The notes below the pieces were generated by a model that made no database searches, was not told the DNA's origin, and worked only from the letters and a program-made list of their open reading frames with translations. A DNA stretch of 64,000 bases, from contig NZ_QGLK01000004.1 of the NCBI RefSeq assembly GCF_003202755.1, forward strand, positions 186,001 to 250,000, read 5' to 3'. How positions within the stretch are numbered: position 1 is the stretch's first letter; each line of letters opens with the position of its first letter. This stretch comes from Bifidobacterium asteroides (GTDB taxonomy: Bacteria; Actinomycetota; Actinomycetes; Actinomycetales; Bifidobacteriaceae). The translations under genes were made by a program, and so were the position numbers. Below are positions 25,611 through 60,370 of the stretch, piece by piece.

Positions 25611-25900
25611 ACACCCTCATCCTCCAGCAGCTGACGCTGACGCTCCGGACCACCAAAGGCGAATCCTGGCGCCAAAGAACCATCACGAAAGACCACGCGA
25701 TGACAGGGAATCACCCCGGGTTCGGGGTTGTCGTGAAGCGCATAACCTACGAACCTGGCATTGCGCGGGTGACCAGTCAGAGAGGCGACCTGACCATAGG
25801 TGGCCACCTTGCCGCGAGGAATCCGCCTGACGACCTGATAAACCTGCTGGGAGAAGGAAAGCTCAGTCATAAGACCCATTCTGCCCGCGTCAACAGACAT
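25526..25900 (-). CDS. MGMT-family DNA alkyl-repair protein
   Basis: Short protein of 124 residues built only from the C-terminal DNA-binding domain of O6-alkylguanine-DNA alkyltransferases. YQVVRRIPRGKVATYGQVA is the helix-turn-helix start, NARFVGYALHDNP holds the arginine finger, and PCHRVV carries the acceptor cysteine. Because the Cys is kept, it could transfer alkyl groups, unlike true ATL proteins where Trp or Ala replaces it; it lacks the N-terminal domain of Ada/Ogt. Starts at 25900, 25879 or 25870 are all possible. It overlaps the dprA end on the opposite strand. Confidence 0.85.
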   Translation of the reverse strand: MSVDAGRMGLMTELSFSQQVYQVVRRIPRGKVATYGQVASLTGHPRNARFVGYALHDNPEPGVIPCHRVVFRDGSLAPGFAFGGPERQRQLLEDEGVHFIPPHSDESAGADGWVVDLDRCRWKA

Positions 25901-25948
25901 AGACCGGATGGGGCGCCGCTATCAATAGGTCGTGACAGTATCGTTGTT

Positions 25949-27850: not shown

Positions 27851-27979
27851 TGTATCCTGAGTCCAATCTGGTCAGACATGCACCTGTTCAAAACCTATCC
27901 CGGTCAGGCAGGGATTAGGATGGAGTCCGCACATATCAGTGGGCATCGGGCCACATCCCGAGCAAGGACAGGAGCAACC

Positions 27980-35999: not shown

Positions 36000-37148
36000 T
36001 CAGGAGTGGTTGAGGATGTGGTCCAGATCCTTGACTATTTGCTGGTTGCCGCCGGACTTTCGCATGTCCTCGCTAATTCTGTTGACATTGTCAGCGATTT
36101 GTTTGTCTGCCAGGATCATCGAGGCTGCACGCCCAGCGTCTGCCCGTTGATCTTTTCGCGCCTCACCACCGTTCCCAGCTCGAGTTCAACGATTCCCGCC
36201 CCTACCGCCAGCTCATCGTCGACCATGGGAACCACCACCATGGGCACCTTTTAGTAAAGATCTTCGTTCACGCTGCTCATGCCGCCATGCGTGATGAACA
36301 GGTCGCCCTCTCAAGGACGGCCAGCTGGTCTACAGACCGGTGGATGAAAATGTTCTGAGGAATCCGCCCCAATTTTGTCCGGTCGAAATCACGGCCCACC
36401 GACATCACCACCGTGACATCATTGTCCCCCGAACGCTGCCACCACCGCCCGGTAAAACGACATAAAGGTATCGAAAATCATACCCAAGGAGGCGTAGATG
36501 ACAGGCCGTCCACCGCCTTTGTTGAGCTCATCATCCAGGCGAGAGTCTCTGGCATGCGCTGCTCTGCCGTCCAGAGAGGGGGCGATGAACTTGAATTGCT
36601 CATCCGAAAACGCTTCATTGCCAAGCTGGAAAGACCGAAACGCGTAGACATAGGTAGGTGTCGGATTGTTGTAGACCATCTCGGTGACGAAACCATCGGT
36701 TTGGATGCGCCCATGCCGCTGCATCGAAAGCGATATCAGTTCACAACGGCAGGAGACTTCAGAAGACTGCTTACGTGCAGCCCGCCCGTATCAGACAGCT
36801 TGGCAAGAATCGACGGATTGTAAGCAAAGGCAGAGGACAGGCGGATAGAGGTTACGCCGATTTGATCAGCAAGGCACTTGCCCGACAGCAACAGACCTTC
36901 ATACACGTAAGCATCGTACTGCTTCTCGGCTGCCAAACGCCGGGCTGTCTCTATCGCATAACCCCCGCCACGAAGACTCTGCACCTTGTTCGGCTGCTCA
37001 GGATAATCATCATAGGGAACAAACAACGCACCCGAATCTTCTATCTAATTTCGCCATCGTAGATCGAGACCGAATAACCGGTCTCCACCAAAAGACACAC
37101 AGTTCCCAAGGTCGGATTGATATGACCTTGATAGGGCATATTCAGCAT
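36000..37148 (-). pseudogene. Decayed MGT-family glycosyltransferase gene
   Basis: The minus strand encodes the whole of a UDP-glycosyltransferase of the macrolide-glycosyltransferase type, split over several frames. The N-terminus reads MLNMPYQGHINPTLGTVCLL from 37148. It is followed after a TAG and frameshift by FVPYDDYPEQPNKVQSLRGG, then in other frames PVIYASLGMIFDTFMSFYRAV, TVVMSVGRDFDRTKLGRIPQ, the sugar-donor signature DLFITHGGMSSVNEDLY, a stop, VPMVVVPMVDDE, and an end ILADKQIADNVNRISEDM closing at 36000. The total would be about 380 residues, normal for the family. At least three frameshifts and several stops make it non-functional. Confidence 0.8.
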
Positions 37149-37513: not shown

Positions 37514-37975
37514 TCAGGCAGCCGCCACATCGTCCAAGGACAAGCCATAGCGTTTCCTAACAGCTCTGATGAACTTCTCCTGATCGGAGCTGTGCACCTC
37601 CAAGGCCGGTACAGGCGAGGGGTTGAAGTTCTCATCCACTGCAATAAAGACAAAGACGCCCTCCCCTACAGTGACTGGTTGCCGCCCGAAACCGAGCATC
37701 AGTACGTTCACGTAAAAGGTCATGGTATGAGTACTGGTGGCGATCATAGTAACTTCGAAATCTATCCGATCGCCAACATGAGTCCGTTGCTTAAAGGAGA
37801 AGTCCCTGATGGACACAGTCAAAACACGCCCATTCACATACTTTTCAGCCAAAAGACCCAGAGCGGAGTCGCACTCGCGGATCATGGCTCCCCCATGGGT
37901 GATTCTCAAATGGTTGAGCATCCTCGGCTCAACGAAAAAATCGCCGATATGCACCTTATAAATGCTCTCGGTCAC
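37514..37975 (-). CDS. Hotdog-fold acyl-CoA thioesterase
   Basis: Predicted thioesterase of 153 residues that would hydrolyse an acyl-CoA to the free acid and CoA. LRITHGGAMIRECDSALGLL is the hotdog helix region; VSIRDFSFKQRTHVGDRIDF and MTFYVNVLMLGF are the strands of the sheet. The sequence resembles the YciA/BFIT acyl-CoA hydrolase group. The start is a GTG with AAGG six bases upstream. It is the last gene of the nine-gene minus-strand operon, 16 bases after the unknown Cys-rich gene. It could release the reduced product from CoA. Confidence 0.8.
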   Translation of the reverse strand: MTESIYKVHIGDFFVEPRMLNHLRITHGGAMIRECDSALGLLAEKYVNGRVLTVSIRDFSFKQRTHVGDRIDFEVTMIATSTHTMTFYVNVLMLGFGRQPVTVGEGVFVFIAVDENFNPSPVPALEVHSSDQEKFIRAVRKRYGLSLDDVAAA

Positions 37976-37991
37976 CGGTCACCTTCTTTCC

Positions 37992-38639
37992 TCAGCCTCT
38001 ATCGATACGGTTGTTGTTTTTACGACGGGGCGATAGGGGAAGACTAAAAACACCATGTTGAGCACAGTGCAGGTACAGGACAAATCCGTTCTTGCACTTG
38101 AAGACGCACTCCTCACAAGGATCCTTGTCACAGTAAACGTAGGCGTCATCGTCAGCCAAAGCAAAAACATAGCCAGACTTATCTGGTCGCAGATAAGTGA
38201 TCTGACAGCCTGTGAAAGTGAGCAGCGCGATCCAGTCCAGGTCGTGCTGCTCTCTGTCTATATCGCCTACCTCAACAGTGATTGCATTGGAATTAAATCC
38301 ACCCACGATGGCATATGAGAACTGATGATCCTGGTCAAGAGGGAGCGCAGAAACCTCTTCATACAAATCCTCGCTTGCTTTGCTAAGGCTCTGGACCACA
38401 CCAGGCACATCCCCATCCGATGTCTGAACATCTTGGCCGCTTTCTCGGACAAGGTCGTGGAGACCACTGGACCGGGTCGAATCAGCATTTGAGGTTCGAT
38501 CCAGGTCCATGTCCAAGAAGATTGAGGAGTCGGCCTGTCTGTAAAAGGCCAACCTCTTTCGCATCATGCGGGGTTTACGACGGGCATGCGACCTGGTCGG
38601 ACTGAAGGTTAACGATCCATGTTCATTGGTCTCGACCAT
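37992..38639 (-). CDS. Unknown Cys-rich protein in the acyl-CoA operon
   Basis: Protein of about 215 residues that I do not recognise. The first 50 residues are strongly basic (SHARRKPRMMRKRLAFYR). An acidic, Ser/Asp-rich middle follows, then a domain with VGGFNSNAITVEVGDIDREQ and WIALLTFTGCQITYLRP. The C-terminal third carries clustered cysteines, in order CDKDPCEECVFKC and then LHCAQHG, which could bind zinc or an iron-sulfur cluster. The ATG at 38639 has GAGG five bases upstream; an upstream ATG at 38654 touches the ligase stop. The tight spacing (20 bases to the ligase, 16 to the thioesterase) argues that it is a real operon member. Confidence 0.65.
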   Translation of the reverse strand: MVETNEHGSLTFSPTRSHARRKPRMMRKRLAFYRQADSSIFLDMDLDRTSNADSTRSSGLHDLVRESGQDVQTSDGDVPGVVQSLSKASEDLYEEVSALPLDQDHQFSYAIVGGFNSNAITVEVGDIDREQHDLDWIALLTFTGCQITYLRPDKSGYVFALADDDAYVYCDKDPCEECVFKCKNGFVLYLHCAQHGVFSLPLSPRRKNNNRIDRG

Positions 38640-38658
38640 GACAACCTCTTTCATGCCG

Positions 38659-40215
38659 TCAGGAAAGCAGATACTTCTTGATCTTGCCGGAACTAGTTCT
38701 GGGCAGAGACTTGCGCACTTTCAAAACTTCGGGCCAGAACTTCTTGATTACTCCACGCGAGGCCAGATACTCTTTGACCTGTTCCAATTCAAGCGGTCGT
38801 TTACCCGTTTTCATGACTATAAATGCACCTATTCGCTCACCCAGACGGGGATCATCAACACCGACCACGGCCGCCTCTGCTATATCTGGGTGCCCCAGCA
38901 GATAGCTCTCCACCAGGCCAGTTGAAATATTCTCGCCTCCTCTGATGACCATGTCCTTAAGCCTGTCATCCATGACAAGAGCTCCGTCCGGCGTCATATG
39001 CCCCTGGTCCCCAGTGGAGAACCAACCATCGCTGGTGAGAACCTTATGGGTCTCTTTTGGATTTCGGTAATACCCTTGAAAGACCGTGGGCCCTTGTACC
39101 AGGATCTGGCCAGACCGGCCCCATTCCCTCACCTGTCTACCTGTCTTGTCGACCAGCCTAATCTTGGTTCCGCATATCGGAAAACCTGCAGTGGTCATCC
39201 CCTCATGAGCACGGTAATAGGCCGGCGTTGTACAGGAAAAGGGGGCGCACTCGGTCAAACCATATATGTTGTAAAGGGGAAGTCCTGATTTCCAAGCCAT
39301 ACCCAGCATGTCCTGTGACAGAGGCGCGCCTCCGGAGATGACCCGTTTCAGGGGGTCACCCGGCCTATACCAAGCAAGCAGGTCATAGACGACGGTGGGC
39401 ACGGTGACCGTGTATGTACAACAGTACCGTCTGGTCAATTCCATCATGGCCTGGCTGCTGTATCGACCAAGAAGCACCATGGATCCACCAGCAAGAAATG
39501 TCGATACGATGCCGTGATGGAAGCCTATGGCATGGTAGAAGCCTGAGGCTAGGATCAATCGATCCTTGTCGGTAATTTCGTAGATTTGATTGAACGAAAT
39601 TTCACTGGCGAGAATATTCTTATTCGAAAGCAGACACCCTTTGGTGTAGCTGGTCGTGCCCGAGGTGCAGAGAATGGCGGCTGGGCGGTTGGATGCAGAC
39701 AGGGAGTCGTAACCAGATTCCGCAGGAGATGCGGACAGAGACAGACGGCGCTGGATGAATAGAGTCCGCTGATTTAGCTGGACCTTCCCGCCACTATAAT
39801 TGTGAGCCCTATCCCTGCAGGCCATGGCCAGAGGACCTTGATCATGGTCCATAACCAGCAGAGATGGCTTCATCTGCTCGACCAGGTAGCAAGCCTCGTC
39901 TGGATTGAGACGGGGACTAAGTGGCATGGTCAGCAATTCCGCCTTGAAACATGCGATGAGCATGATCACATAGGTCAGATTCGTCTCCATCTGCAAGCCC
40001 ACGACATCGCCACGACGCACATGGCATTGATTAAGAATGGAGATGGCCAGGTCGGCCATTCGGTCAGCCTCGGCATAGGTCAGCTCCCTTTCTTCACTAA
40101 TCAGGAAAACGGATCCTGGCGTCGAACGGCATCGCCTTCTCCAACGTTCGCCGAGCGAATCCCCCGACAACACAGAGCGGGACACGACCTGATCTGTTTC
40201 GGCTGCAGCCTCCAT
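38659..40215 (-). CDS. Acyl-CoA synthetase (AMP-forming, CaiC-like)
   Basis: Predicted ANL-family ligase of about 518 residues that activates a carboxylic acid to its CoA thioester with ATP. Motifs: P-loop-like LCTSGTTSYTKGCLLS, the A5 motif NIYGLTECAPFS, STGDQGHM with the AMP-binding Asp, the hinge DRLKDMVIRGGENIS, and the C-terminal catalytic Lys in LPRTSSGKIKKYL. The ATG at 40215 has GGAG six bases upstream and clears the etfA stop at 40238. It may prime the pathway that the CoA-transferase then sustains, as CaiC does for carnitine. The carboxylate substrate is not predictable by eye. Confidence 0.88.
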   Translation of the reverse strand: MEAAAETDQVVSRSVLSGDSLGERWRRRCRSTPGSVFLISEERELTYAEADRMADLAISILNQCHVRRGDVVGLQMETNLTYVIMLIACFKAELLTMPLSPRLNPDEACYLVEQMKPSLLVMDHDQGPLAMACRDRAHNYSGGKVQLNQRTLFIQRRLSLSASPAESGYDSLSASNRPAAILCTSGTTSYTKGCLLSNKNILASEISFNQIYEITDKDRLILASGFYHAIGFHHGIVSTFLAGGSMVLLGRYSSQAMMELTRRYCCTYTVTVPTVVYDLLAWYRPGDPLKRVISGGAPLSQDMLGMAWKSGLPLYNIYGLTECAPFSCTTPAYYRAHEGMTTAGFPICGTKIRLVDKTGRQVREWGRSGQILVQGPTVFQGYYRNPKETHKVLTSDGWFSTGDQGHMTPDGALVMDDRLKDMVIRGGENISTGLVESYLLGHPDIAEAAVVGVDDPRLGERIGAFIVMKTGKRPLELEQVKEYLASRGVIKKFWPEVLKVRKSLPRTSSGKIKKYLLS

Positions 40216-40237
40216 ATTCATCTCCAGACCACCTTGA

Positions 40238-41191
40238 TCAGTTCGATTCTTCAGCAGATCCTGGCGCTGCAGTCTTCTCAATAAGTTCTGTCAGCGCCTG
40301 ACGAGCATCAGCCACCAAGCCATAGTCAGCCAGATCGAAGATGGGCGCCTCGGCATCGGTGTTTATAGCTACCACACACTTGGACTTATCCATCCCGACA
40401 GTGTGCTGAATCGTTCCGGAAATCCCGGCGGCCAGATAGAGATCGGGGGCAACAGTCTTCCCTGATTGACCTACCATTGTGGAAGTAGCGAACCACCCGG
40501 CATCGACCGCAGCCCTTGATGCGCCAACGGCACCATTCAGCTGCTCCGCCAAACTGTTAACCAGTGCGGCCCCATCCTTATCCTGAAGTCCACGACCGCC
40601 AGCTACGACCAATCTGGCTGTGGACAGGTCTGGCCCCTGATTTTGATCAGAGAGCGTGAACTGAGCATCATTGTCATCGACGGTAGCTTCCTTATGAATC
40701 ACTGGAATTGCTTCGTCTCTCTCTGCAGGAGGTACAGCCGTAAGATCAACAGTGAATACTGCAGGCACATTGCACCGGTAGCCCTGGATCAAAGAGCCCG
40801 AATACACTTTTTTATGTACGGTGAGTATTGAAGCTTTCTTTGAAAGATCGATGACATGGGTCACGGCCGGTACTCCCATGATGGCTGCGAGACGGACAGC
40901 GATTTGCTGGGAGAATCTGGTGTCATCAAAGAGCACAAGAGCATCAGATTGCTCTTTGATATAGTCAGCCACGGCCTGAGCGGCACCATCGGGATTGGCT
41001 GGCCCAAGTGCCTGGCTCTCCAGAACAGTGACCTGGTCAAGTCCCTTGTAGCGGGCATCGCCCTGATCAGGCAGGACCAATGCCTCCAATTTCGAACCCA
41101 GATCCGCACGAAGAGCAAAGGAAGTCAAACTCCCAGCTGATTCATCAAGAGAAAGACCGGGTAAGACCAGGAATACGGTATCGAATTGCAT
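40238..41191 (-). CDS. etfA: Electron transfer flavoprotein alpha subunit
   Basis: FAD-binding subunit of about 317 residues. The C-terminal domain has the usual FAD-binding run: VAGGRGLQDKDGAALVNSLA, GASRAAVDAGW, VGQSGKTVAPDLYLAAGISG and IQHTVGMDKSKCVVAINTD. The ATG at 41191 begins right after the etfB stop, with GGAG five bases upstream, so EtfB and EtfA are translationally coupled. It delivers electrons to, or takes them from, the acyl-CoA dehydrogenases encoded just upstream. Whether this ETF bifurcates electrons depends on a second FAD site that I cannot judge here. Confidence 0.92.
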   Translation of the reverse strand: MQFDTVFLVLPGLSLDESAGSLTSFALRADLGSKLEALVLPDQGDARYKGLDQVTVLESQALGPANPDGAAQAVADYIKEQSDALVLFDDTRFSQQIAVRLAAIMGVPAVTHVIDLSKKASILTVHKKVYSGSLIQGYRCNVPAVFTVDLTAVPPAERDEAIPVIHKEATVDDNDAQFTLSDQNQGPDLSTARLVVAGGRGLQDKDGAALVNSLAEQLNGAVGASRAAVDAGWFATSTMVGQSGKTVAPDLYLAAGISGTIQHTVGMDKSKCVVAINTDAEAPIFDLADYGLVADARQALTELIEKTAAPGSAEESN

Positions 41192-41193
41192 GA

Positions 41194-41931
41194 TCACTCC
41201 TTCTTCAGTCGAATGCCAACCTGGTCCAAAGCACGGATCAGGTCATCGACAGAGTCCACCATTATGACCTCCTTGCTGGAGGCTGGAACCTCTTCCATCT
41301 CCAATTTTTCAAGAGGATCCTTTTGGCTCGATTCCGCTTGGAACTCCTTGATCTGATAACGTTTGGCCGCCATCTTCAAACGAAAACTGGGCAGACGCGG
41401 CTTGTTGATGGTGTCGAGGACCGAAACCACTGCTGGAAGCTGAACGGTGCCTTTCACCGCCCCCTTGTCCAGAAGGGACGTGTAGCAAAGACGAGGTCCA
41501 ACGAACCCTAAAGCATCCACTGCATCCACTAAGGGCCAACCGAGGGCGGCAGCCAGTTGGGCAGGAAGGACACCCTGGCTGTCATCCGTAGCCTGATCCC
41601 CGCAAAGAACCAGATCGAATGGCCCTTCCTTGTTGACAGCCTGGGCAAGAATGTCAGCCAGCCCGGCGTTTTCCTGATCCGTCTTGACCTCAATAGCATC
41701 CTGAGCACCTAAGGCCAACGCATCCCTTAGTGCCGTCTCAGAATCCGGACCTACGGAAGCCGCAGTCACGCTACCCTGGTCATCCTGATCCTGAGCCAGC
41801 TGAAGACCCGCTTCGAGCGCATACTTGCCATAATGATCCAGAACTACGTCTCCGCTGGTGAGACGACCTTCAGAAAGAGAAGGCTGGGGACCAGGATCAA
41901 CCACCCCCTTGACCAATACAAGCACCTTCAT
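41194..41931 (-). CDS. etfB: Electron transfer flavoprotein beta subunit
   Basis: Partner of EtfA, 245 residues. The family signs are the start MKVLVLVKGVVDPG, LCGDQATDDSQGVLPAQLA (matching the FixA-type nucleotide-binding segment) and the end NKPRLPSFRLKMAAKRYQI. The ATG overlaps the acyl-CoA dehydrogenase stop by four bases (ATGA), so expression is coupled to that dehydrogenase. The best analogues by layout are FixA and CarD-type ETF subunits that serve a single dedicated dehydrogenase. Confidence 0.9.
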   Translation of the reverse strand: MKVLVLVKGVVDPGPQPSLSEGRLTSGDVVLDHYGKYALEAGLQLAQDQDDQGSVTAASVGPDSETALRDALALGAQDAIEVKTDQENAGLADILAQAVNKEGPFDLVLCGDQATDDSQGVLPAQLAAALGWPLVDAVDALGFVGPRLCYTSLLDKGAVKGTVQLPAVVSVLDTINKPRLPSFRLKMAAKRYQIKEFQAESSQKDPLEKLEMEEVPASSKEVIMVDSVDDLIRALDQVGIRLKKE

Positions 41932-43088
41932 CGCCCCACCTCCTTGCCTGCATACTCCTTGTCAAGTTCGTTGGCGATGGTCACACGTTGAATCTGGTTG
42001 GTCCCCTCGAAAATCTGAAAGACCTTGCTGTCGCGCATGAGTTTTTCTACGGGATAGGCCTTGGAGACTCCGTACCCACCAAAGACCTGGACCGCATCGG
42101 TAACCACGCGTTGCAAAGCGTCGGTCACATAGGTCTTGGTCATCGCCCCTTCCTTGCGCACGAGGTTGCCCTGATCCATCATGGTCATGGTGTTGTGGAT
42201 CAGCACTTGTGAGGTCTCCAGTGCGATTGCCATATCGGCCAGCATCTCCTGCACGGCCTCGAATCGAATGATGGGCCTCTTGAACTGACTGCGAATACGG
42301 GCGTATGAGACAGATTCGTCAAGCGCACGTTGCATGATGCCGGCAGCCAGTGTGGCCACAAACGCCCGAGACAGATTAAGACTGTTCATAGCCACCTTGA
42401 AGCCAGCTCCCTCGTCCCCCAGACGGTTGCTTGCCGGCACACGGACATGATCGAAGTTGACAGTGGAGGTGTCAGACAGGCGCAAGCCCATCTTATCTTC
42501 ATGAGCGCCCACACTGATGCCTTCACGAGAACGCTCGATCATGAAGGCGCTAAGCCCCTTGTTTCCGGTGTCAGCCGTACGGAAGATACCTACATAGACA
42601 TTGGCGATGCTGCCGTTGGTGATGAATGTCTTTTCGCCAGTGAGAATGTAATCATCCCCATCACGGGTGGCCGTGGATTTGACTGATCCCGCATCCGTGC
42701 CTGCATCAGACTCGCTCAGCGCGAAAGCTGCGAAAGCACCTGGTTCGATGATGTCGGCAAAACGCCGGGCCTGGTCCGCGCTGCCTGCAAGCATGACTGA
42801 GCGAAGTGCCACGAAGGTCGAAACCAAGGTGATGGCGTATCCAGCATCATACTCGGCCAGTTTTGAGAAGACCATAGCAGTGGTGGAATAAGGCAAACCT
42901 GCACCGCCATATTCCTCGGGTATCTCCAGCATGTGCAGACCCATGTCGAAAGCGGGCTTGAAGAGTTCCACCGGGCATTGCCCCAAGTGGTCGTACTTGC
43001 TGACGACCTCTGGGGTCAATGTCTGGTCAGCAAACTCCTGAACCATTCTAATGAATTCACGTTGTTCTTGCGTATACAGTAAAGCCAA
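41928..43088 (-). CDS. Acyl-CoA dehydrogenase (reductase) 1
   Basis: FAD enzyme of 386 residues. The middle domain has SESDAGTDAGSVKSTATRDG and LTGEKTFITNGSIANVYVGI. The C-terminal helical domain has KRPIIRFEAVQEMLADMAIA, QVFGGYGVSKAYPVEKLMRD and the catalytic base Glu361 in IFEGTNQIQR. The start is a TTG at 43088 with AAGGAG six bases upstream; the frame can be read further upstream, but this start gives the normal family length. With its own ETF in the same operon and no thiolase or hydratase, it probably reduces an enoyl-CoA, like CarC, AcdA or Bcd. Confidence 0.9.
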   Translation of the reverse strand: MALLYTQEQREFIRMVQEFADQTLTPEVVSKYDHLGQCPVELFKPAFDMGLHMLEIPEEYGGAGLPYSTTAMVFSKLAEYDAGYAITLVSTFVALRSVMLAGSADQARRFADIIEPGAFAAFALSESDAGTDAGSVKSTATRDGDDYILTGEKTFITNGSIANVYVGIFRTADTGNKGLSAFMIERSREGISVGAHEDKMGLRLSDTSTVNFDHVRVPASNRLGDEGAGFKVAMNSLNLSRAFVATLAAGIMQRALDESVSYARIRSQFKRPIIRFEAVQEMLADMAIALETSQVLIHNTMTMMDQGNLVRKEGAMTKTYVTDALQRVVTDAVQVFGGYGVSKAYPVEKLMRDSKVFQIFEGTNQIQRVTIANELDKEYAGKEVGR

Positions 43089-43125
43089 TGTCCTCTCCTT
43101 ATTTCCTTCCCTTAATGGATGGGAA

Positions 43126-44364
43126 TCAAATTGGATCGCCGATGTGCCTGGTAGAAGCCGCCGCCCCGTCCAAGACCATCTGACGGATTTGCTCATCCGT
43201 ATAGCCGGCTTCGCGCAGTACTGACTCGGTGTCGCTTCCTTGGGCACGCGAAGGTCTGAGCTCGGGCTTGCCTAGTGAGGCGAATTTGACAGGATTGGTC
43301 GGGATGAACCGCTCCTGTCCGGAGGGGAAACGCATCTTCCTGACCTCGTCATTGTCCAGAGCCTCATTATCGGTATAGATTTCGGTTGGCAGGTAGCAAG
43401 CCTCCAAGGGCAGATCCTCTTTCTTGAAAGCATCAAGCCAATGCTGAAGTGGCCTCTTGCGGAATTCCCCATCCAGAATGCTAATGAACTCCCGGTTGAG
43501 TCCCTCGGCATTGATCTTGTCTATATCCCTGTATCTGGGATCATCCAGCAGATCTTCACGCCCCAGCAGAGTCATGACCTTGTTGTAGTCCCTGTTGAAT
43601 ACCGGCACACACATGACAAACCACCGGTCGTCGCTGGTCTGGTAACAATTGTTGAACGGGTTGGAAACCTCCATGCGTGTCTTGGGATAGGGATTGCCAT
43701 ACTGGGCTGAAACCATGGCAACGTTCTGCATGAAAATGGCCGCATGATGCAGAGCCACAGTGATCCTGTCGCCCTTTCCGGTTCTGGCCTGTCTGATCAG
43801 AGCGGCACAGATGCCGGCTGTCAGACACATAGCTACTTGAAAGTCGCCATAGCCATTGGGCGGATTCATAGGGCTGGTGCCCTTCTCCATAGTGGTGGCC
43901 AGAACACCGCCGCGCGCCATATAGCTGGTGGCATCGTAACCTGCCGTGTTCTTGTTGGGCCCGTCCTCCCCATAACCGGAACACTGAGCGTAGACCAGCT
44001 TGGGGAATCGATCCTTGAGGGAGTCATAATCAATGCCCAGGTGTTCGAGTGACTTGCTTCTCAGGTTGGTCAGAAAGACATCCGCCCCCTCCAACAGCTT
44101 CATGAAAGCCTTCAGGCCATCCTCCTTCCGCAAGTTGAGTGTTACAAAACGCTTGTTGAGGTTGGAGATATCGAAACCCAAATTCTCGTCATCCGCGTAG
44201 GGCATGTTGAAGACAGCTCCCTGAGTACGCTCAGCATCGCCTTTGGGAGGCTCCACCTTGATCACGTCAGCACCCCACTCGCCCATGATCCTGGCGACCG
44301 TCGGTGCAGCCAGGAATGTGGTCATGTCAACGATGCGGATGCCACTTAAAACCTTGTCAGTCAT
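43126..44364 (-). CDS. Class III CoA-transferase (CaiB/BaiF family)
   Basis: Predicted CoA-transferase of 412 residues that moves CoA from an acyl-CoA product to an incoming acid, saving ATP. The N-terminal GIRIVDMTTFLAAPTVARIM, EWGADVIKVEPPKGDAERTQ and the catalytic Asp174 in NGYGDFQVAM are typical. The ATG at 44364 is chosen to give the usual length; the open frame extends further upstream without support. It lies between the two dehydrogenase genes, as caiB lies with caiA. Substrate unknown. Confidence 0.88.
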   Translation of the reverse strand: MTDKVLSGIRIVDMTTFLAAPTVARIMGEWGADVIKVEPPKGDAERTQGAVFNMPYADDENLGFDISNLNKRFVTLNLRKEDGLKAFMKLLEGADVFLTNLRSKSLEHLGIDYDSLKDRFPKLVYAQCSGYGEDGPNKNTAGYDATSYMARGGVLATTMEKGTSPMNPPNGYGDFQVAMCLTAGICAALIRQARTGKGDRITVALHHAAIFMQNVAMVSAQYGNPYPKTRMEVSNPFNNCYQTSDDRWFVMCVPVFNRDYNKVMTLLGREDLLDDPRYRDIDKINAEGLNREFISILDGEFRKRPLQHWLDAFKKEDLPLEACYLPTEIYTDNEALDNDEVRKMRFPSGQERFIPTNPVKFASLGKPELRPSRAQGSDTESVLREAGYTDEQIRQMVLDGAAASTRHIGDPI

Positions 44365-44423
44365 AAAATTTGCCTTTTCCACATGATCCGCCGACGGTTC
44401 ATCACCGCCGGCGAAAGCTTGTG

Positions 44424-45626
44424 TCACTTGATGATGCCGTTGTCTGCTATCAGCTTGCGAGAGGCCGTCAAGCGCTGAACCGTGCGCGGGCCCTCCTCCA
44501 GCCACATAGCACGGCAATCACGGTACATGCGTTCTACAGGACCATAGGGGTTGTCCTCGAAGTAACCAATGCCCCCGAAGATTTCGAAGCAGTAGTCAGA
44601 GACCAGCTTGACCGTATCTATGCTGAAGAGCTTGCACATGGCAGCTTTCTCCTCGATGTCCTCCCCCCTGTCATACTGCTCAGCCAGGTCGGTCAGCATG
44701 CAACGCAGAGCGAAGATGTGGGTACCCATATCGGCGATCATCTGCTGGATAGCTTGACGCTTGGCCAGGGGCTTACCGAAGGTAACGCGGTCCTTTGCTC
44801 GGGCAATGGCCATCTCCAGGAAGCGCTGGCTCATACCGAGATTGGAAACGGCGATGTGAGCGCGAGAGATGGATAGAGATGCTATCGCCACATGGAGGCC
44901 ATCACCTTCCTCGCCCAGTTGGAATCGCTTGTTGACGCGCATATTGGTGAAGCGCAGCCCGGCATGTCCTGCACCCCTGCAGCCCATCATGTGGGGCATG
45001 GGAACAATCTCATATCCCGGTGTGTCAACAGGCACATAGAAAGCAGTAAGGCGCTCGGGACCTGGCTTGTCGGGATCGGTCACAGCAAAGACATAGGCCG
45101 CGTCCGAACAGTCGGTATGAGAAATCAAGGTCTTTTCGCCGTTGAGAATGAAGTCATCGCCATCCCTGACGGCAGAGGTATGCAGATCGGCGCCCGTTCC
45201 ACCAGTTTCCTCAGTCAGGGCAAAGCAGGTGAAGATGCTTTTGTCCTGAAGCTTGGGCATGACCTCGGCCTTGAGCTCGGGCTGCCCGAACTCATTCATG
45301 ATCCTCCAGTTCAAATCAGCGGCATAATGCAGGTGCATTCTCATGCCGCCGGGTCCACGGGAGAAACGCTCCTGGACTTGGAAGATCTGATGGCAGTTCA
45401 GACCGAAACCACCATACTTCAGCGGAAGCGCAAACCTATATAGATCATTGTCAATAGCCAGTCGGAAGAACTCCTTGGGGAAGGTATTGGTAACTTCCAC
45501 CTCCTTCTGCATTTCATCAAATTCGTTCTCTGCAAGGTGCTGGATCTGCTTCAGATAGAGTTGGAACTCATCATCAGTCATTTTGGTTCCGGGTTGAGTA
45601 TGCACCAGCTTTTGTGTTGGTTCCAT
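44424..45626 (-). CDS. Acyl-CoA dehydrogenase (reductase) 2
   Basis: Second acyl-CoA dehydrogenase-family protein, 400 residues, diverged from the first. The core blocks are FALTEETGGTGADLHTSAVR, LNGEKTLISHTDCSDAAYVF and FGKPLAKRQAIQQMIADMGT. In the C-terminal part EIFGGIGYFEDNPYGPVERM is followed by Glu378 of LEEGPRTVQR, which falls at the catalytic-base position. Its start is only three bases after the MFS stop. The presence of two dehydrogenases may mean a heteromeric enzyme, two steps, or two substrates. Confidence 0.87.
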   Translation of the reverse strand: MEPTQKLVHTQPGTKMTDDEFQLYLKQIQHLAENEFDEMQKEVEVTNTFPKEFFRLAIDNDLYRFALPLKYGGFGLNCHQIFQVQERFSRGPGGMRMHLHYAADLNWRIMNEFGQPELKAEVMPKLQDKSIFTCFALTEETGGTGADLHTSAVRDGDDFILNGEKTLISHTDCSDAAYVFAVTDPDKPGPERLTAFYVPVDTPGYEIVPMPHMMGCRGAGHAGLRFTNMRVNKRFQLGEEGDGLHVAIASLSISRAHIAVSNLGMSQRFLEMAIARAKDRVTFGKPLAKRQAIQQMIADMGTHIFALRCMLTDLAEQYDRGEDIEEKAAMCKLFSIDTVKLVSDYCFEIFGGIGYFEDNPYGPVERMYRDCRAMWLEEGPRTVQRLTASRKLIADNGIIK

Positions 45627-45629
45627 TAC

Positions 45630-46859
45630 TTACTGCTCCTTTTCTTTTGTGCCAATCTTTTTGGCAATCAGAAATACATCAATGACCAGTCCGACCAGGG
45701 CCACACAAATAGCCACCATGTAGGCACCGCGATAGGCCCCCACACCTGCCGACTGGTCTATAAAACGCGCTGCGATCTGAGGACCCAGGAGTGCACCAAT
45801 GGCATAGCCGAAGAACATGATGCCGTAGTTGGTACCGGAGTGGGTTTGGCCAAAGACGCTACTTGTCAGGGTCGGGTAAACCACCAAGACGCCACCGAAG
45901 GAGGCTCCCAGCAGAATGAGGAAAATTGCAAAAAACCAAACATTGTGGGCTACGCTCAGGCCACCCAAACCCACCATGGTCAGGATAAGAATCAGAGCCA
46001 GGGTCTTGGTCTGACCCAGCTTGTCGGTCAAGCGCCCAGTAATTAGACGGCCGCAGAAGTTGGCCAAGGTATTTATGACAACCATATTGGCTGCCGTTAT
46101 CGGAGTCATGCTGAGCTGGACCTGGGCAATGGGCGACAAGGAGCCGATCAGCATGATGCCTGCTGTGCAGGAGATGGCGAACAGGGCCAGCATGAGCCAA
46201 AAGCGACCGGTCTTGAGCATCTGTCCAGGGGTGTAATCGTTGGACTCTACAGTCGCCGTTGTCGCTGTGCCCGTGTTATCCACCTGCTCGGGTGAATCCA
46301 TAAGCCAACCGACAGCCCAGCAAATGATGAGGTAGGCCAGACCAATAGGAATGAAGCCGTTCATCCCAAACTTGTCACAGAGGACAGCACCGACCTTAGC
46401 CAGGACCAGAGGCCCCAATGAAGCGGCAGCGAGCAGGAAGCCGGAAATGGTGCCTCGCTTCTCAGGGAACCACTTCAAAGCAGTCAATAGAGCAGGGTTG
46501 TACATGATTCCATTGCCGGCGCCCGCCATCAAACCTACTGTCAGGTAAAGGAGCGGAAGGCTGTGGACAAACGCCGTCAGGCCCCATCCCAGCCCAAAAA
46601 CGAGTCCTCCCACATACATGAGCTTCTTGGCCCCGAATCTGTCCATGATCCAGCCGGAGGCTACCCCAAAGCAGGCCATGAAGAACTGGTAGAGGGTCAA
46701 TGTGAAGGCAACCTGCGAGGCGGTGCCATTTACAGCCTTGCGTAGGGGTTCAGCGAAGACGGAAAACGCTGACGACGCGGCACAACAGAAAATAATTAAG
46801 AAAGCCGCTGTGAAAACAAACCAACGGTTTCTGTTTTTCCCAGTGACAGCTTCTACCAT
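45630..46859 (-). CDS. MFS transporter, oxalate/formate antiporter (OFA) family
   Basis: Twelve-helix major facilitator of 409 residues and the first gene of the acyl-CoA operon. YQFFMACFGVASGWIMDRFG holds the loop 2-3 signature with DRFG, and GLMAGAGNGIMYNPALLTAL with KWFPEKRGTISGF is characteristic of the OFA group that carries carboxylates, often by antiport. It is therefore the likely importer of the acid or an exchanger of substrate for product. The promoter lies in the 304-base gap shared with the divergent LysR gene. Confidence 0.88.
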   Translation of the reverse strand: MVEAVTGKNRNRWFVFTAAFLIIFCCAASSAFSVFAEPLRKAVNGTASQVAFTLTLYQFFMACFGVASGWIMDRFGAKKLMYVGGLVFGLGWGLTAFVHSLPLLYLTVGLMAGAGNGIMYNPALLTALKWFPEKRGTISGFLLAAASLGPLVLAKVGAVLCDKFGMNGFIPIGLAYLIICWAVGWLMDSPEQVDNTGTATTATVESNDYTPGQMLKTGRFWLMLALFAISCTAGIMLIGSLSPIAQVQLSMTPITAANMVVINTLANFCGRLITGRLTDKLGQTKTLALILILTMVGLGGLSVAHNVWFFAIFLILLGASFGGVLVVYPTLTSSVFGQTHSGTNYGIMFFGYAIGALLGPQIAARFIDQSAGVGAYRGAYMVAICVALVGLVIDVFLIAKKIGTKEKEQ

Positions 46860-46934
46860 TTGGCCTCCTTGCCCGATGAGTATCTGTCAATCTGTCTGCA
46901 CAACTAGGCCTCACGATAGTGACGCAATTCACAT

Positions 46935-46956
46935 ATTCCCAATACAAAATAGGAAT
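46935..46956. promoter_or_regulatory. LysR-type binding site candidate
   Basis: ATTCC-N12-GGAAT is an interrupted palindrome in the divergent intergenic region between the operon's MFS gene (starting at 46859) and the lysR-type gene (starting at 47164). LysR regulators commonly bind such spaced dyads. The region is AT-rich and should also hold both promoters. Confidence 0.5.
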
Positions 46957-47163
46957 GATTTAATAGGGCAACAAAGTATAATCAGCAACTTTGCCAACAA
47001 GAAACTCACAAAACAGATCATCAAGGTTGCTCTGTATTAAAAATACATATAGACCCATAGCGAGTCATTATTTAATTTGTTGGATTTTTTTTCATACGAT
47101 GGGAATGAATCGCAAGGAAGAGATCATATTCATACATGACTGCCGGGGCTAGATAAATTCCTC

Positions 47164-48114
47164 ATGCAGCTTGAAGAAAAGAAGGTACGACCAGTGAATC
47201 TCCATCAGCTCAGTTACTTTCGAACATTGGTTGAATACAGACAATTCACCATAGCGGCAGAGGAATTGCATATCAGTCAGCCGACACTCAGCAATTCCAT
47301 CAAATCCATGGAGAAGGAGCTGGGATGCCTGCTGGTCAAGCGGAGTGGACATCAGATAGAACTTACCGAATATGGCAAAATGTTCTACAACACTGCATGC
47401 TCCACTCTGACTGTATTCGATCAAGGGGTCAAAGCACTCCATGACAAGGTTCAGAGTGATGCCGACTATGTGAATCTAGCCTGCATTCCCACTTTCATCG
47501 GCACCTATCTTCCCCGCGCCATAAAGGCCTTCCAGGAAATGAATGGGGGAATGCCCAAGTTCATACTGGCCAACCAGATCTCCCTGCCCATTCTGGAAGG
47601 GCTGGTCTCCGATAAATACAAGATGGGAATCTGCTCCTACGACCCGAGATTCGAAGAACTCAACTTCATTCCTCTCTATGGCGAACGGTTCGTGGTCGCG
47701 GTTCCGCCGGGCCACCCCCTGGCTGCGTTCGAGACCATTAATCCCTACATGCTAACCTCATACAACTTAATCACCTACGGGGATGACACCCCTATTGGGC
47801 GCGAGATTCGAGAAAGCCTTGCCGATATCTGGGCGGATCTGCACATAGCCGACACCCTGGATGGGGAGATCACGATAGCAGGCGAAGCCTTGGCCAACGA
47901 TGCCGTTGCTGTGGTAGCAGACACTATCCTTCTGGATTCCTTCGAGCTGCGACGAATACCACTCAATGTCAGCAAGGACACCCACAAAGTCTATATCGTC
48001 TACGATCCGCGCCGTCAGCTTTCCCACTGGTACAAGGAATTCGGGCTCTTCCTGCAGAAGGACTTGGGAAAGGGACTGAACCCAAGACTGAACATGCTCC
48101 GATCCTCCAGCTAA
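47164..48114 (+). CDS. LysR-family transcriptional regulator
   Basis: Regulator of about 306-316 residues. The winged helix-turn-helix is at the N-terminus (HQLSYFRTLVEYRQFTIAAE, SQPTLSNSIKSMEKELGCLL). The remainder is a periplasmic-binding-like effector domain (VNLACIPTFIGTYLPRAIKA; FVVAVPPGHPLA). A GTG at 47194 would give the commoner VNLHQLSYF start. It is divergent from the acyl-CoA operon and upstream of the GlcD-like gene, the classic position for controlling both. A carboxylate or acyl-CoA effector is likely. Confidence 0.9.
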   Translation: MQLEEKKVRPVNLHQLSYFRTLVEYRQFTIAAEELHISQPTLSNSIKSMEKELGCLLVKRSGHQIELTEYGKMFYNTACSTLTVFDQGVKALHDKVQSDADYVNLACIPTFIGTYLPRAIKAFQEMNGGMPKFILANQISLPILEGLVSDKYKMGICSYDPRFEELNFIPLYGERFVVAVPPGHPLAAFETINPYMLTSYNLITYGDDTPIGREIRESLADIWADLHIADTLDGEITIAGEALANDAVAVVADTILLDSFELRRIPLNVSKDTHKVYIVYDPRRQLSHWYKEFGLFLQKDLGKGLNPRLNMLRSSS

Positions 48115-48222
48115 CCATCAAGGATCACAGATTACGCCACTGGCCTACACAGTGACAGGGCAAATCATTCTGCATAAAGCAACGACATGAAAAGACAACA
48201 TACCCGTGAAAGGAATGAGGTA

Positions 48223-49671
48223 ATGGACAATATCAATCCAACACAGTCTGCTCAGTTCTCGCAGACCAGCATGGACCCAGTGAAGTCGGATCGGATCGAA
48301 GGGGCCCTGGAGGAACTGAAAGAACACTTTGGCCCGGATGCACTCAAATCAGGAAGCGAAATCAACTCTGACTACGGGCACGATGAGATGGAAACCGTCT
48401 TCCACCTGCCCGATATTCTGATTACGCCGACCTGTACCGAGGATGTCTCCCAGGTCTTGAGAATAGCCGATCGCTACGAGATTCCCGTAGTTGCCAGAGG
48501 CGGGGGAACCGGTCTGGTCGGAGGTTCGGTGGCCGTCGAGGGTGGAATCATGATTGACCTGGCCGGCATGAACAAGATCATCGGAATTGACGTGACCAAT
48601 GCCATGCTGATCACCCAGCCCGGTGTTCTTCTTAAGGATGTAGCGGCCTATGCCAAGGACCACGGTTTCCTCTATGCACCGGACCCTGGTGAAAAAACAG
48701 CCACCATCGGCGGGAACATATCTACTAACGCTGGCGGCATGAGAGCAGTAAAATACGGAGTGACCAGAAATTCGGTAGAAGCCATAACCGTGGTAACAGC
48801 CCCCGGCGATATCGTCAACTTAGGCGGCATCGTCAGCAAGAACAGCTCTGGTTTCGATCTGAAGGACCTGATCATAGGATCCGAAGGCACCTTGGCAATC
48901 GTCACCGAAGCCCGACTCAAGCTCTTCCCACTGCCCAAATTCAGCACCAGCCTGCTCATCCCATTCAACGACTATCATGCAGCTATTTCAAACGTTCCCA
49001 GAATTTTAGCCACTGGAATCAGACCCACTGCTCTGGAGTTTTTTGAGGAGGACTCTATTGCCCTCTGGGAGAACTACGCCCACGATTCCTTCCCTGAAAA
49101 AGGATTCAAGGCCTACCTTCTCCTGACTTTCGATGGAGCCAGTCAGCAAGCCATCGAGGAGGCCTATGAGGAAACGGCTGAACTCTGCCTGGCCCATGAG
49201 GCCGCCGATGTATTCGTTCTGGATGACCAATCTCTCTCTGACCAAGTGTGGCGAGCGCGGGACTCCTTCCTCGAGGCCTTCAAAAACTCGACATCGCAAA
49301 TGGACGAGATTGACGCTGTGGTTCCGGTAGGATCTTTGGCAGACATGGTGGACTTCACGCACTCCTATTCCGAAAATAACGGAATCAGAATAGGCGGGTT
49401 CGGGCACGCCGGAAACGGAAACCTTCACCTCTACATATGCCGAGACGACCTGAACGATCGTGATTGGCGAACCAAATTGCGTCTGGCCTTCGACGCTCTG
49501 TATGGCAAAGCATACGAGCTTCAAGGAAAGATCTCTGGTGAACACGGGATCGGTTACGCTAAGCGCGACTATCTGGTTGCCACAACCCAGCCTCAGGTTC
49601 TCACCATGATGCGTGCTGTGAAGCGGGCCTTGGACCCCAAGAACATTCTCAACCCTCAGAAAGTTATCTGA
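48223..49671 (+). CDS. FAD-linked 2-hydroxyacid dehydrogenase (GlcD/LctD-like)
   Basis: Flavoprotein of 482 residues predicted to oxidise D-lactate, glycolate or another 2-hydroxyacid. The PCMH-type FAD domain shows VVARGGGTGLVGGSVAVEGG, NISTNAGGMRAVKYGV and LIIGSEGTLAIVTEARLKLF. The C-terminal oxidase domain has GFGHAGNGNLHLYICRDD and KISGEHGIGYAKRDYL. The ATG at 48223 follows AGGA at eight bases. No GlcE or GlcF partner is encoded. Proteins of this type can pair with EtfAB (as LctD with LctBC in acetogens), and an EtfBA pair lies in the facing operon, so electron flow from a hydroxyacid to an enoyl-CoA is plausible. Confidence 0.87.
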   Translation: MDNINPTQSAQFSQTSMDPVKSDRIEGALEELKEHFGPDALKSGSEINSDYGHDEMETVFHLPDILITPTCTEDVSQVLRIADRYEIPVVARGGGTGLVGGSVAVEGGIMIDLAGMNKIIGIDVTNAMLITQPGVLLKDVAAYAKDHGFLYAPDPGEKTATIGGNISTNAGGMRAVKYGVTRNSVEAITVVTAPGDIVNLGGIVSKNSSGFDLKDLIIGSEGTLAIVTEARLKLFPLPKFSTSLLIPFNDYHAAISNVPRILATGIRPTALEFFEEDSIALWENYAHDSFPEKGFKAYLLLTFDGASQQAIEEAYEETAELCLAHEAADVFVLDDQSLSDQVWRARDSFLEAFKNSTSQMDEIDAVVPVGSLADMVDFTHSYSENNGIRIGGFGHAGNGNLHLYICRDDLNDRDWRTKLRLAFDALYGKAYELQGKISGEHGIGYAKRDYLVATTQPQVLTMMRAVKRALDPKNILNPQKVI

Positions 49672-49794: not shown

Positions 49795-51084
49795 ATGTCC
49801 ACTCAAAACCCAGGGTCAGTCATGAAGAAACCCAAGCAGTCCAAATATGCTTTCCTGATCGTTCTTTCCGGCATCATTTTCACCGGTGTGCCTGGGGCTA
49901 TGATCTACAGTTGCGCTGGCATCTTCTTCTCACCCGTTTCGGAGTACTTCCATGTTTCCAAGGCAGCCGTGGCAGGATACTTCAGCGCCTTGAACATCAC
50001 CATGATGGTGGCCCTGCCCATAGCAGGCAAGTTGATGAGCAAGTTCGACCTTCGCATCGTTTTAACATGCTGCGCACTCCTGTCGGGGATGGGATGCCTC
50101 TCCATATCTTTCATGTCGGCCGTCTGGCAATTCTACATAGCGGGAGTCGTCATGGGAATCGGTTTGCCGGCCCTCCTTTACCTGGCTGTACCCGCCATGA
50201 TCAATGCCTGGTTCAAAGTCAAGGTAGGTTTTCTGACGGGGCTCTGCATGGCTTTCACCGGCATCGGCGGGGTCATCTTCAACCAGTTGGGTACTGTACT
50301 GATCAGAACAGGGCATGATGGATGGCGCCGTGGATACCTGGTATTCGGACTCATCATATTAGTGGTCACTCTCCCATTCACCATTTTTATCGTCCGTTCC
50401 GATCCCTCAGAAAAGGGTTTGGCCCCCTACGGCTCTGAACGGACAGAAGCCGATAATGAACCTGAGCTTCAAACCAAAGGCGTTATGGCGTCGAGGGCTA
50501 TGAGAACCAGCGCCTTCATCGCCCTGGCAGGTTTCTGCGGCATTATTACCATGAACCAAACCGTCTATCAGTTCCTGCCATCCTATGCTCATTCATTCCA
50601 GAACAGTGCACCACAGATTGCCACCCTGACGGGTCTGATAGCATCCTGCTGCATGGCCGGACAGGCCATAGGCAAGGTCTTCTTGGGAGCTGCCAACGAC
50701 AGAAGCATCATCGGTGGCATGGGGATGGGCATCGGCTGCGGCATTCTGGGTGTGGCGCTGATGGCCTTGATGCCTACGATCGCTCCTGTGCTTTTACTTG
50801 GATCCTTTGCCTTCGGATTCGCCTATGCTTTCCCCTCGGTTCAGACGCCACTTCTGGTTCGCGCTGTATTCGGATCCAAGGACTACACCAACATTTACTC
50901 CAGAGTTCAGATGGTCGGAGTCCTGGCCTCAGCCTTTGCTGCCCTCTTCTGGGGAACCATAGTGGACATGCCCCACGGGTACGCCATCATGTTTGCACTT
51001 AGCGCAGTTTGCATGATCATTACTTTCGTCCTCGGGGCTTGGGCGCTGAAGCAGCGTCCCAAGCTCAAGGCACTCATGGAGTGA
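49795..51084 (+). CDS. MFS transporter (monocarboxylate/OFA-like)
   Basis: Twelve-helix carrier of 429 residues. The sequence blocks IYSCAGIFFSPVSEYFHVSK, MGIGLPALLYLAVPAMINAW and LTGLCMAFTGIGGVIFNQLG resemble carboxylate and OFA-type MFS carriers. It lies downstream of the GlcD-like dehydrogenase, so uptake of its hydroxyacid substrate (such as lactate) or export of a pathway product is a fair inference. It starts after a strong AGGGAGGA site. Confidence 0.85.
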   Translation: MSTQNPGSVMKKPKQSKYAFLIVLSGIIFTGVPGAMIYSCAGIFFSPVSEYFHVSKAAVAGYFSALNITMMVALPIAGKLMSKFDLRIVLTCCALLSGMGCLSISFMSAVWQFYIAGVVMGIGLPALLYLAVPAMINAWFKVKVGFLTGLCMAFTGIGGVIFNQLGTVLIRTGHDGWRRGYLVFGLIILVVTLPFTIFIVRSDPSEKGLAPYGSERTEADNEPELQTKGVMASRAMRTSAFIALAGFCGIITMNQTVYQFLPSYAHSFQNSAPQIATLTGLIASCCMAGQAIGKVFLGAANDRSIIGGMGMGIGCGILGVALMALMPTIAPVLLLGSFAFGFAYAFPSVQTPLLVRAVFGSKDYTNIYSRVQMVGVLASAFAALFWGTIVDMPHGYAIMFALSAVCMIITFVLGAWALKQRPKLKALME

Positions 51085-60312: not shown

Positions 60313-60320
60313 AATCGCAA

Positions 60321-60342: not shown

Positions 60343-60370
60343 ACGGTCCACAACAGGAAAGGAAATTATC

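What the first reader, a model, noticed from the sequence alone, without database searches (positions are those of the whole stretch)
37514..46859. Nine-gene acyl-CoA reduction operon with its own ETF in a fermentative actinobacterium
One tight minus-strand operon holds an OFA-type carrier, two acyl-CoA dehydrogenases, a class III CoA-transferase, EtfB, EtfA, an AMP-forming CoA ligase, an unknown Cys-rich protein and a thioesterase. Gaps are at most 59 bases, and several genes overlap or abut. No thiolase, enoyl hydratase or 3-hydroxyacyl-CoA dehydrogenase is present, so it is not beta-oxidation. The set matches the logic of carnitine (CaiABC/FixAB), caffeate (CarABCDE) and reductive Stickland systems: import an unsaturated acid, charge it with CoA, reduce the enoyl-CoA as an electron sink, and recycle CoA. 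Bifidobacteria are not generally known for this, so it may be a new anaerobic electron-acceptor pathway. Plant phenylpropenoates are one candidate substrate class, as inference only.
Basis: partly seen in the sequence, partly recalled or inferred. Interest (0 to 1): 0.88.

Follow-up and report, generated by a model that had tools for sequence, protein, structure and literature searches.

The report
Acquired shikimate-type acid reduction operon
A bacterium from a family that almost always lacks such genes seems to have picked up, from lactic acid bacteria, a gene set that probably lets it burn lactate by passing the electrons to a ring-shaped plant acid such as shikimate.

Summary
The nine-gene operon is real and continues into a divergent LysR gene, an LctD-type lactate dehydrogenase and a second MFS carrier. 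Its marker dehydrogenase is in 1 of 189 sampled genomes of the host's family; the closest relatives, with the same order but without CysX, are in Lactiplantibacillus (88-89%), so it was probably acquired. Beta-oxidation is unlikely: no enoyl-CoA hydratase in the genome. In several lineages the cluster lies near 3-dehydroquinate dehydratase and/or quinate/shikimate dehydrogenase genes, and both dehydrogenases lack a usual pocket tyrosine. Best reading: CoA-dependent reduction of a hydroaromatic acid, probably shikimate, as electron sink for lactate. EtfB lacks a bifurcation-type motif kept in clostridial relatives. The 'unknown Cys-rich protein' has a superoxide-reductase fold with a new four-cysteine motif. 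Substrate, product and donor are inferred. Against: the host lacks the dehydratase, and in Eggerthellaceae the linkage is weak.

The parts
45630..46859 (-). MFS1, OFA-type monocarboxylate carrier (importer of lactate or of the substrate acid)
   Evidence: NCBIfam SfMCT L-lactate MFS transporter 320.8 bits, cut-off 320; 73-75% identical in four Lactiplantibacillus operons
44424..45626 (-). ACADA, acyl-CoA dehydrogenase A (family marker)
   Evidence: Pfam; 88-89% in Lactiplantibacillus; tree; Glu-Glu-Gly at the catalytic Glu in 81 of 81 orthologues
43126..44364 (-). CaiB-type class III CoA-transferase
   Evidence: PF02515 292 bits; 75-76% in Lactiplantibacillus; start read
41928..43088 (-). ACADB, acyl-CoA dehydrogenase B, TTG start
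   Evidence: Pfam; 76% in Lactiplantibacillus; Phe before catalytic Glu (sequence); start read
41194..41931 (-). EtfB without the DGDTGQ bifurcation-type motif
   Evidence: PF01012; alignment; tally of relatives
40238..41197 (-). EtfA, without the N-terminal extension of LctC
   Evidence: PF00766 and PF01012; aligns to the 418-residue LctC only from its residue 126
38659..40221 (-). AMP-forming acyl-CoA ligase
   Evidence: PF00501 213.6 bits; start read
37992..38654 (-). CysX: superoxide-reductase/desulfoferrodoxin-fold protein with CX4CX2CX3C motif
   Evidence: profile A3 against PDB: desulfoferrodoxins, best E 9.8e-8; AlphaFold2 model; Foldseek and VIA-align top rows
37514..37975 (-). 4HBT thioesterase
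   Evidence: PF03061; 42-48% in Lactiplantibacillus operons
46860..47163 (.). 304-base intergenic region between divergent MFS1 and LysR, presumed control region
   Evidence: read; promoter scan no better than shuffles
47164..48114 (+). LysR-type regulator
   Evidence: PF03466 and PF00126; 51-53% and same position in Lactiplantibacillus-type operons
48187..49671 (+). LctD-type FAD lactate (2-hydroxyacid) dehydrogenase, presumed ETF partner
   Evidence: best PDB match LctD of the LDH/Etf complex 7qh2_C, 500 bits, next 236; only match in the genome at E<=1e-30
49795..51084 (+). MFS2 carrier, possibly part of the locus
   Evidence: PF07690; about 31-39% relatives beside ACADA loci, most of them of Eggerthellaceae

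Best explanation
A horizontally acquired operon for CoA-dependent reduction of a hydroaromatic acid, most likely shikimate, used as an anaerobic electron sink for lactate. Steps: MFS1/MFS2 import the acid and/or lactate (inferred). The ligase primes the acid as its CoA thioester, and the CaiB-type transferase then moves CoA from product to new substrate (inferred from family). LctD oxidises lactate and reduces the ETF; the ETF passes electrons to ACADA/ACADB, which reduce the ring enoyl-CoA, giving a dihydroshikimate-type acid (inferred). The thioesterase releases stranded CoA (inferred). In Clostridium, Acetobacterium, Halanaerobium and Sporomusa the same kind of cluster has an EtfB with a bifurcation-type motif; in the Lactobacillaceae and the host that motif is gone, and in the lineages nearest the host (Lactiplantibacillus, Agrilactobacillus) an LctD gene sits beside the operon, suggesting a rewiring to a direct lactate circuit. 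Shown: genes, order, near relatives, linkage, folds. Not shown: substrate, product, donor, electron flow.
For: Linkage: type I 3-dehydroquinate dehydratase (AroD) in 5 and AroD or AroE in 9 of 76 loci (family scans of genes of L101, L071 and L082); beyond the locus ends also in A. composti, L. corticis, L. kimbladii and H. salsuginis at about 10-14 kb and in two of four further genomes, G796 and G1066, at 11 and 16.5 kb. In G796 and A. composti one run holds ACADA-CaiB-ACADB-EtfB-EtfA-LIG-CysX-LctD-MFS-LysR-AroE-AroD-OYE-TE. Active site: no Tyr before the catalytic Glu in either dehydrogenase; passages of PMC11659651 tie replacement of that Tyr to alpha-substituted substrates, cyclohexane-1-carbonyl-CoA among them. 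Donor: LctD best match; one ETF, one LctD, two ACADs found in the genome; LctD at E<=1e-30 in 2 of 27 genus genomes, host included, the other at 35%. Motif loss. Origin. Known phenotype: title of Carr et al. 1957 in a reference list and a passage in PMC13204703.
Against: The host genome has no AroD and one AroE, as each of 13 congeners tested, so quinate use cannot be inferred. In Eggerthellaceae 31 of 46 ACADA genomes have no type I AroD, and AroD is adjacent in only 2 of the 15 that have both, so ACADA may serve other substrates there. In one search six of ten AroD-bearing genomes chosen by taxon have AroD on another contig or more than 100 kb away (about 135 kb in L. mudanjiangensis, over 1 Mb in Actinomycetaceae zg-1166), and so do two of four. 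Thirteen of 76 loci have none of CaiB, ligase, CysX or ACADB-type genes near ACADA. Carriers differ between clusters. The L. corticis/kimbladii group has no LctD beside the cluster; of five of its genomes searched four have 38-41% homologues elsewhere and one none, and G1066 has none in the stretch read. CysX is absent from the Lactiplantibacillus and L. corticis/kimbladii operons. The pocket residues of CarC and CaiA themselves were not compared, and ETF:quinone oxidoreductase was not searched.
Confidence: 0.6

Rival explanations
1. One reading: reduction of a chain-type enoate (cinnamate/caffeate, crotonobetaine or acrylate) as electron acceptor.
For: Same gene kinds as car, cai and acr systems; the best NCBIfam model for both ACADs is acryloyl-CoA reductase, though far below cut-off.
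Against: Equivalog cut-offs missed by a wide margin; no enoyl-CoA hydratase family match (CaiD type) in the genome; no Tyr before the catalytic Glu (the residue in CarC and CaiA was not compared); linkage of relatives to AroD/AroE.
Confidence: 0.15
2. Same substrate class, opposite direction: a cyclohexane- or cyclohexene-carboxylate is oxidised or dehydrated, towards an aromatic acid, with electrons leaving through the ETF.
For: ACADs are reversible; both ACADs also hit cyclohexanecarboxyl-CoA dehydrogenase models below cut-off; CysX and ACADA occur without an ACADB orthologue in many loci, Eggerthellaceae above all.
Against: The only other ETF-linked type of dehydrogenase found in the host is LctD, lactate is far more reducing than these acyl-CoAs (recalled potentials), and lactic acid bacteria are reported to reduce quinate.
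Confidence: 0.15
3. The cluster acts on another ring or alpha-branched acid, and AroD/AroE linkage reflects shared plant-acid regulons only.
For: Weak linkage in Eggerthellaceae; host lacks AroD; UbiD-family genes in Sporomusa clusters.
Against: Linkage recurs in Lactobacillaceae, Halanaerobium, Oscillospiraceae, Eubacterium and Slackia.
Confidence: 0.1

Closest known systems
Lactiplantibacillus garii/dongliensis/mudanjiangensis/songbeiensis operons (no characterisation found; L057, L058, L075, L059)
   Same: LctD-LysR divergent from MFS-ACADA-CaiB-ACADB-EtfB-EtfA-LIG-TE, ACADA 88-89% identical
   Different: No CysX; AroE and AroD genes elsewhere in three of these genomes
Acetobacterium woodii lactate dehydrogenase/Etf complex LctBCD (7qh2)
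   Same: LctD-type dehydrogenase encoded with one ETF
   Different: EtfA lacks the N-terminal extension; EtfB lacks the DGDTGQ motif; the ETF is encoded with two ACADs
Caffeyl-CoA reductase CarCDE (6fah)
   Same: ACAD plus ETF; family-level similarity
   Different: No bifurcation-type motif in EtfB; two ACADs; CarC's pocket residue was not compared
Carnitine CaiTABCDE/FixAB
   Same: CaiB-type transferase, AMP ligase, ACAD, ETF
   Different: Equivalog cut-offs missed; no CaiD-type hydratase; carriers are MFS
[quoted passage not shown] properties recalled)
   Same: ACADs on ring acyl-CoAs; model NF043006 is the second-best NCBIfam hit of both ACADs
   Different: 302.6 and 185.1 bits against a cut-off of 650
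Superoxide reductase/desulfoferrodoxin
   Same: Fold of CysX
   Different: No conserved His in the family; four invariant Cys in CX4CX2CX3C

Membership tests
Carnitine CaiABC/FixAB | NCBIfam equivalogs CaiA, CaiB, CaiC over cut-off | tested here: not met
   CaiA 175 and 129 of 540 bits, CaiB 116 of 413, CaiC 193 of 651
Carnitine CaiABC/FixAB | crotonase-fold hydratase CaiD | tested here: not met
   no PF00378 match in the genome; control rang in 13 of 14
Acryloyl-CoA reductase AcrABC | NCBIfam equivalogs over cut-off | tested here: not met
   308 and 220 of 640 (AcrC), 147 of 600 (AcrA), 50 of 475 (AcrB)
Caffeate CarABCDE / bifurcating ETF-ACAD | EtfB loop of the DGDT type | tested here: not met
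   window reads ATDDSQGVLP; 11 of 25 EtfB near an ACADB orthologue carry DGDTGQ, none of the 11 Lactobacillaceae ones; the meaning of the motif is recalled
LctBCD electron-confurcating lactate dehydrogenase | LctD subunit | tested here: met
   7qh2_C 500 bits, next 236; activity not tested
LctBCD electron-confurcating lactate dehydrogenase | EtfA with N-terminal extension (ferredoxin-type, recalled) | tested here: not met
   319 aa; alignment to the 418-aa LctC starts at its residue 126
Quinate/shikimate utilisation cluster | AroD and/or AroE near the CoA cluster in relatives | tested here: met
   9 of 76 loci, four more of the same genomes beyond the locus ends, two further genomes; weak in Eggerthellaceae
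Quinate/shikimate utilisation cluster | AroD and a second AroE in the host genome | tested here: not met
   no PF01487; one PF08501
Quinate/shikimate utilisation cluster | activity on shikimate | not testable with these tools
   needs enzyme assay
Cyclohexanecarboxyl-CoA dehydrogenase | NCBIfam NF043006/TIGR03207 over cut-off | tested here: not met
   302.6 and 185.1 of 650; 170.4 and 150.4 of 575
Superoxide reductase | fold | tested here: met
   sequence profile; structure
Superoxide reductase | four His and one Cys iron site (recalled) | tested here: not met
   no invariant or nearly invariant His in 36 sequences; one member (L067) matches PF01880
Fatty-acid beta-oxidation | enoyl-CoA hydratase in the genome | tested here: not met
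   thiolase and 3-hydroxyacyl-CoA dehydrogenase were not searched genome-wide

The most novel reading that the evidence does not exclude
ACADA, CaiB, ligase and CysX form a widespread, unrecognised system for reducing (and perhaps dehydroxylating) shikimoyl-CoA in anaerobes. CysX is a superoxide-reductase fold turned into a new four-cysteine metal protein of that pathway. In lactic acid bacteria and this host the ETF was rewired from NADH/ferredoxin bifurcation to a closed lactate dehydrogenase-ETF-acyl-CoA dehydrogenase circuit, giving lactate-dependent, respiration-like growth without membranes, NADH or ferredoxin.
Probability: 0.35. Interest if true: 0.85.

Novelty: new variant of a known kind. 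Interest (0 to 1): 0.74.

Why it matters
Reduction of quinic to dihydroshikimic acid by lactic acid bacteria is the title of a 1957 paper (seen in a reference list), and a 2024 paper on coffee and the gut says that knowledge of the enzymes for gut quinate degradation is mostly lacking and cites reduction to hexahydrobenzoic acid as one proposed route (passages). This locus offers named candidate genes in strains that are in culture. It would also show how an electron-bifurcating ETF can become a plain shuttle for a lactate dehydrogenase, and adds a repurposed superoxide-reductase fold to acyl-CoA metabolism.

Tried and rejected
Beta-oxidation or branched-chain catabolism: rejected, no ECH_1 match in the genome. 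Plasmid or phage origin: megablast of the operon against plasmids found nothing; the best ACADA match in plasmids is 64% (Sporomusa termitida), and all 29 phage records with a match are below 60%. Sigma-70 promoters: 12 found, 10.8 expected, uninformative. Base composition: mean GC 0.533 for 12 locus genes against 0.583 for 17 other window genes, a weak hint only. CaiB catalytic Asp: a pattern found a candidate in 32 of 44 orthologues and missed 12, so no claim is made (a first pattern was too narrow). A comparison with cyclohex-1-ene-carboxyl-CoA dehydrogenase (7p98) residues was not possible because that alignment was not printed. Literature: ten searches, for six names of shikimate-CoA compounds or enzymes, found no paper, and in the listings shown (20 of 124, 20 of 414) none was seen that names genes for quinate or shikimate reduction in lactic acid bacteria. 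Most subscription journals are not held. Carr 1957 and Kung 2013 are not held.


Full report
OBSERVATION. The nine genes are intact and tightly packed on the minus strand. The unit does not end at 46859: a divergent LysR gene, an LctD-type FAD dehydrogenase and a second MFS gene follow on the plus strand. In the genome (2,167,340 bases, 7 contigs) this is the one ETF pair found, these are the two ACADs found and this is the one LctD-type match at E<=1e-30. ETF:quinone oxidoreductase was not searched. No ECH_1 enoyl-CoA hydratase was found (control 13 of 14).

DISTRIBUTION AND ORIGIN. ACADB has no match in 26 congeners and 10 other family members. ACADA was sought in 189 genomes of the family: besides the host only two matched, at 23-25% identity, that is, other ACADs. 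A scan of genome contigs with the ACADA alignment gave 147 relatives, of which the best 80 (76 loci) were kept. The best are four Lactiplantibacillus species at 88-89%, then Agrilactobacillus composti at 79%. The Lactiplantibacillus operons have the same order, including LysR and LctD, without CysX. In a maximum-likelihood tree of 82 ACADA rows the window lies beside Lactiplantibacillus with A. composti outside (98/87 and 98/99). Among 350 sampled Lactobacillaceae genomes 9 have ACADA at E<=1e-120. This supports transfer from a Lactobacillaceae donor; the direction rests on the near-absence in the host family.

SUBSTRATE CLASS. In Oscillospiraceae L101 the cluster holds two AroE-type shikimate dehydrogenases and a type I dehydroquinate dehydratase (Pfam and NCBIfam); L070, a MAG without a family name, has the same set by BLAST. 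Over the 76 loci AroD is found in 5, AroE in 9, either in 9; one AroE hit (L122, 28%) is weak. With AroD searched in whole genomes, 10 of 12 genomes chosen by taxon have it, and in 4 of these 10 it lies about 10-14 kb from ACADA (A. composti, Halanaerobium salsuginis, Lactobacillus corticis, L. kimbladii); in the other 6 it is on another contig or more than 100 kb away. Of four further Lactobacillaceae genomes taken, all have AroD, two of them close by: G796 at 11 kb in one continuous cluster with LctD, and G1066, whose ACADA is 89% identical to the window's, at 16.5 kb. Lineages are related in part, so these are not independent events. Against this: in 138 Eggerthellaceae-type genomes (family of G477) ACADA occurs in 46 and AroD in 21, both in 15 (Fisher p 2e-4), but they are adjacent in only 2. 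The host itself has no AroD and one AroE, so shikimate rather than quinate is the predicted substrate.

ACTIVE SITES. In 32 of 32 ACADB orthologues (at least 52% identical) the residue before the catalytic Glu is Phe (23), Leu (6) or Met (3, read by eye from rows the pattern missed); in 81 of 81 ACADA orthologues it is Glu. [quoted passage not shown] This fits a ring substrate and speaks against chain enoates; it is not proof, and CarC and CaiA were not compared.

ELECTRON DONOR. The plus-strand dehydrogenase matches LctD of the Acetobacterium lactate dehydrogenase/Etf complex at 500 bits, the next structure at 236. Of 25 EtfB near an ACADB orthologue 11 carry DGDTGQ (Clostridium, Acetobacterium, Halanaerobium, Sporomusa and kin); 14 do not: all 11 Lactobacillaceae, two Actinomycetota and a Bacillus with the near-variant DTDAGQ. 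The window reads ATDDSQGVLP. That the motif marks bifurcating ETFs is recalled. EtfA has no LctC-type extension. LctD lies beside the operon in 5 of the 76 loci, all Lactobacillaceae (Lactiplantibacillus and A. composti), and in G784, G796 and G779 but not in the stretch read of G1066. In the L. corticis/kimbladii group it is not in the cluster; four of five genomes searched have 38-41% homologues elsewhere, one none. ETF and ligase diverge much faster than ACADA in Lactobacillaceae (ACADA 97%, EtfB 54%, EtfA 61% between L057 and L058) than between Clostridium ljungdahlii and Acetobacterium paludosum (88, 74, 75). The simplest reading is loss of the NADH/ferredoxin role and a switch to LctD as donor.

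KNOWN BACKGROUND. [quoted passage not shown] PMC11602726 (passages) says knowledge of the enzymes for gut quinate degradation is mostly lacking. Ten searches of the held library showed no gene-level account in the listings seen.

VERDICT. A real, probably acquired operon; most likely a lactate-driven reduction of a hydroaromatic acid through CoA thioesters. The kinds of parts are known; the combination and the substrate appear undescribed in what could be searched.

Noticed in passing
L057 (Lactiplantibacillus garii), downstream of EtfA: The ligase is split into two ORFs, so it may be broken or a sequencing error; not followed further.
   Followed up: no
L165 (G779), about 8489-9678: ACADA is interrupted (287 aa open frame, 1 TGA; two ORFs) in an otherwise intact-looking cluster on an 11-kb contig.
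   Followed up: no
L166:13794-14756: A transposase-like ORF (by eye) lies where LctD is expected beside LysR in genome G1066.
   Followed up: no
L077, L083, L084, L087, L089, L090 (Lactobacillus corticis/kimbladii group): EtfB of L077 and L089 has lost part of the cofactor loop; the clusters also carry a CitG-like gene (by eye), a nitronate-monooxygenase-family gene and an FMN-bind/flavocytochrome-c-like reductase.
   Followed up: partly
L145, L146, L147, L167: Lactiplantibacillus-type AroE-AroD genes sit with a flavin reductase of about 770 aa and a 318-319-aa protein that looks ApbE-like (by eye), perhaps a second reduction route.
   Followed up: no
L047 (Sporomusa termitida plasmid pSPTER): ACADA, CysX, ACADB, ETF and ligase genes on a 131-kb plasmid together with a UbiD-family decarboxylase and SDR/alcohol dehydrogenases.
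   Followed up: partly
window 25592-29191: Fumarate reductase/succinate dehydrogenase-like flavoprotein and iron-sulfur genes side by side; a membrane anchor was not searched for.
   Followed up: no
window 254-3802: Large protein with seven RCC1 repeats and Listeria-Bacteroides repeats, perhaps a surface protein.
   Followed up: no
window 58849-60946: Cytosine/purine-type permease followed by an isochorismatase-family hydrolase.
   Followed up: no
window 61582-62817: MFS gene in a stretch of about 39% GC, well below the rest of the window, possibly a recent import.
   Followed up: no
window 36419-37026: Two short consecutive minus-strand ORFs without Pfam match, perhaps remnants of a longer gene.
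   Followed up: partly
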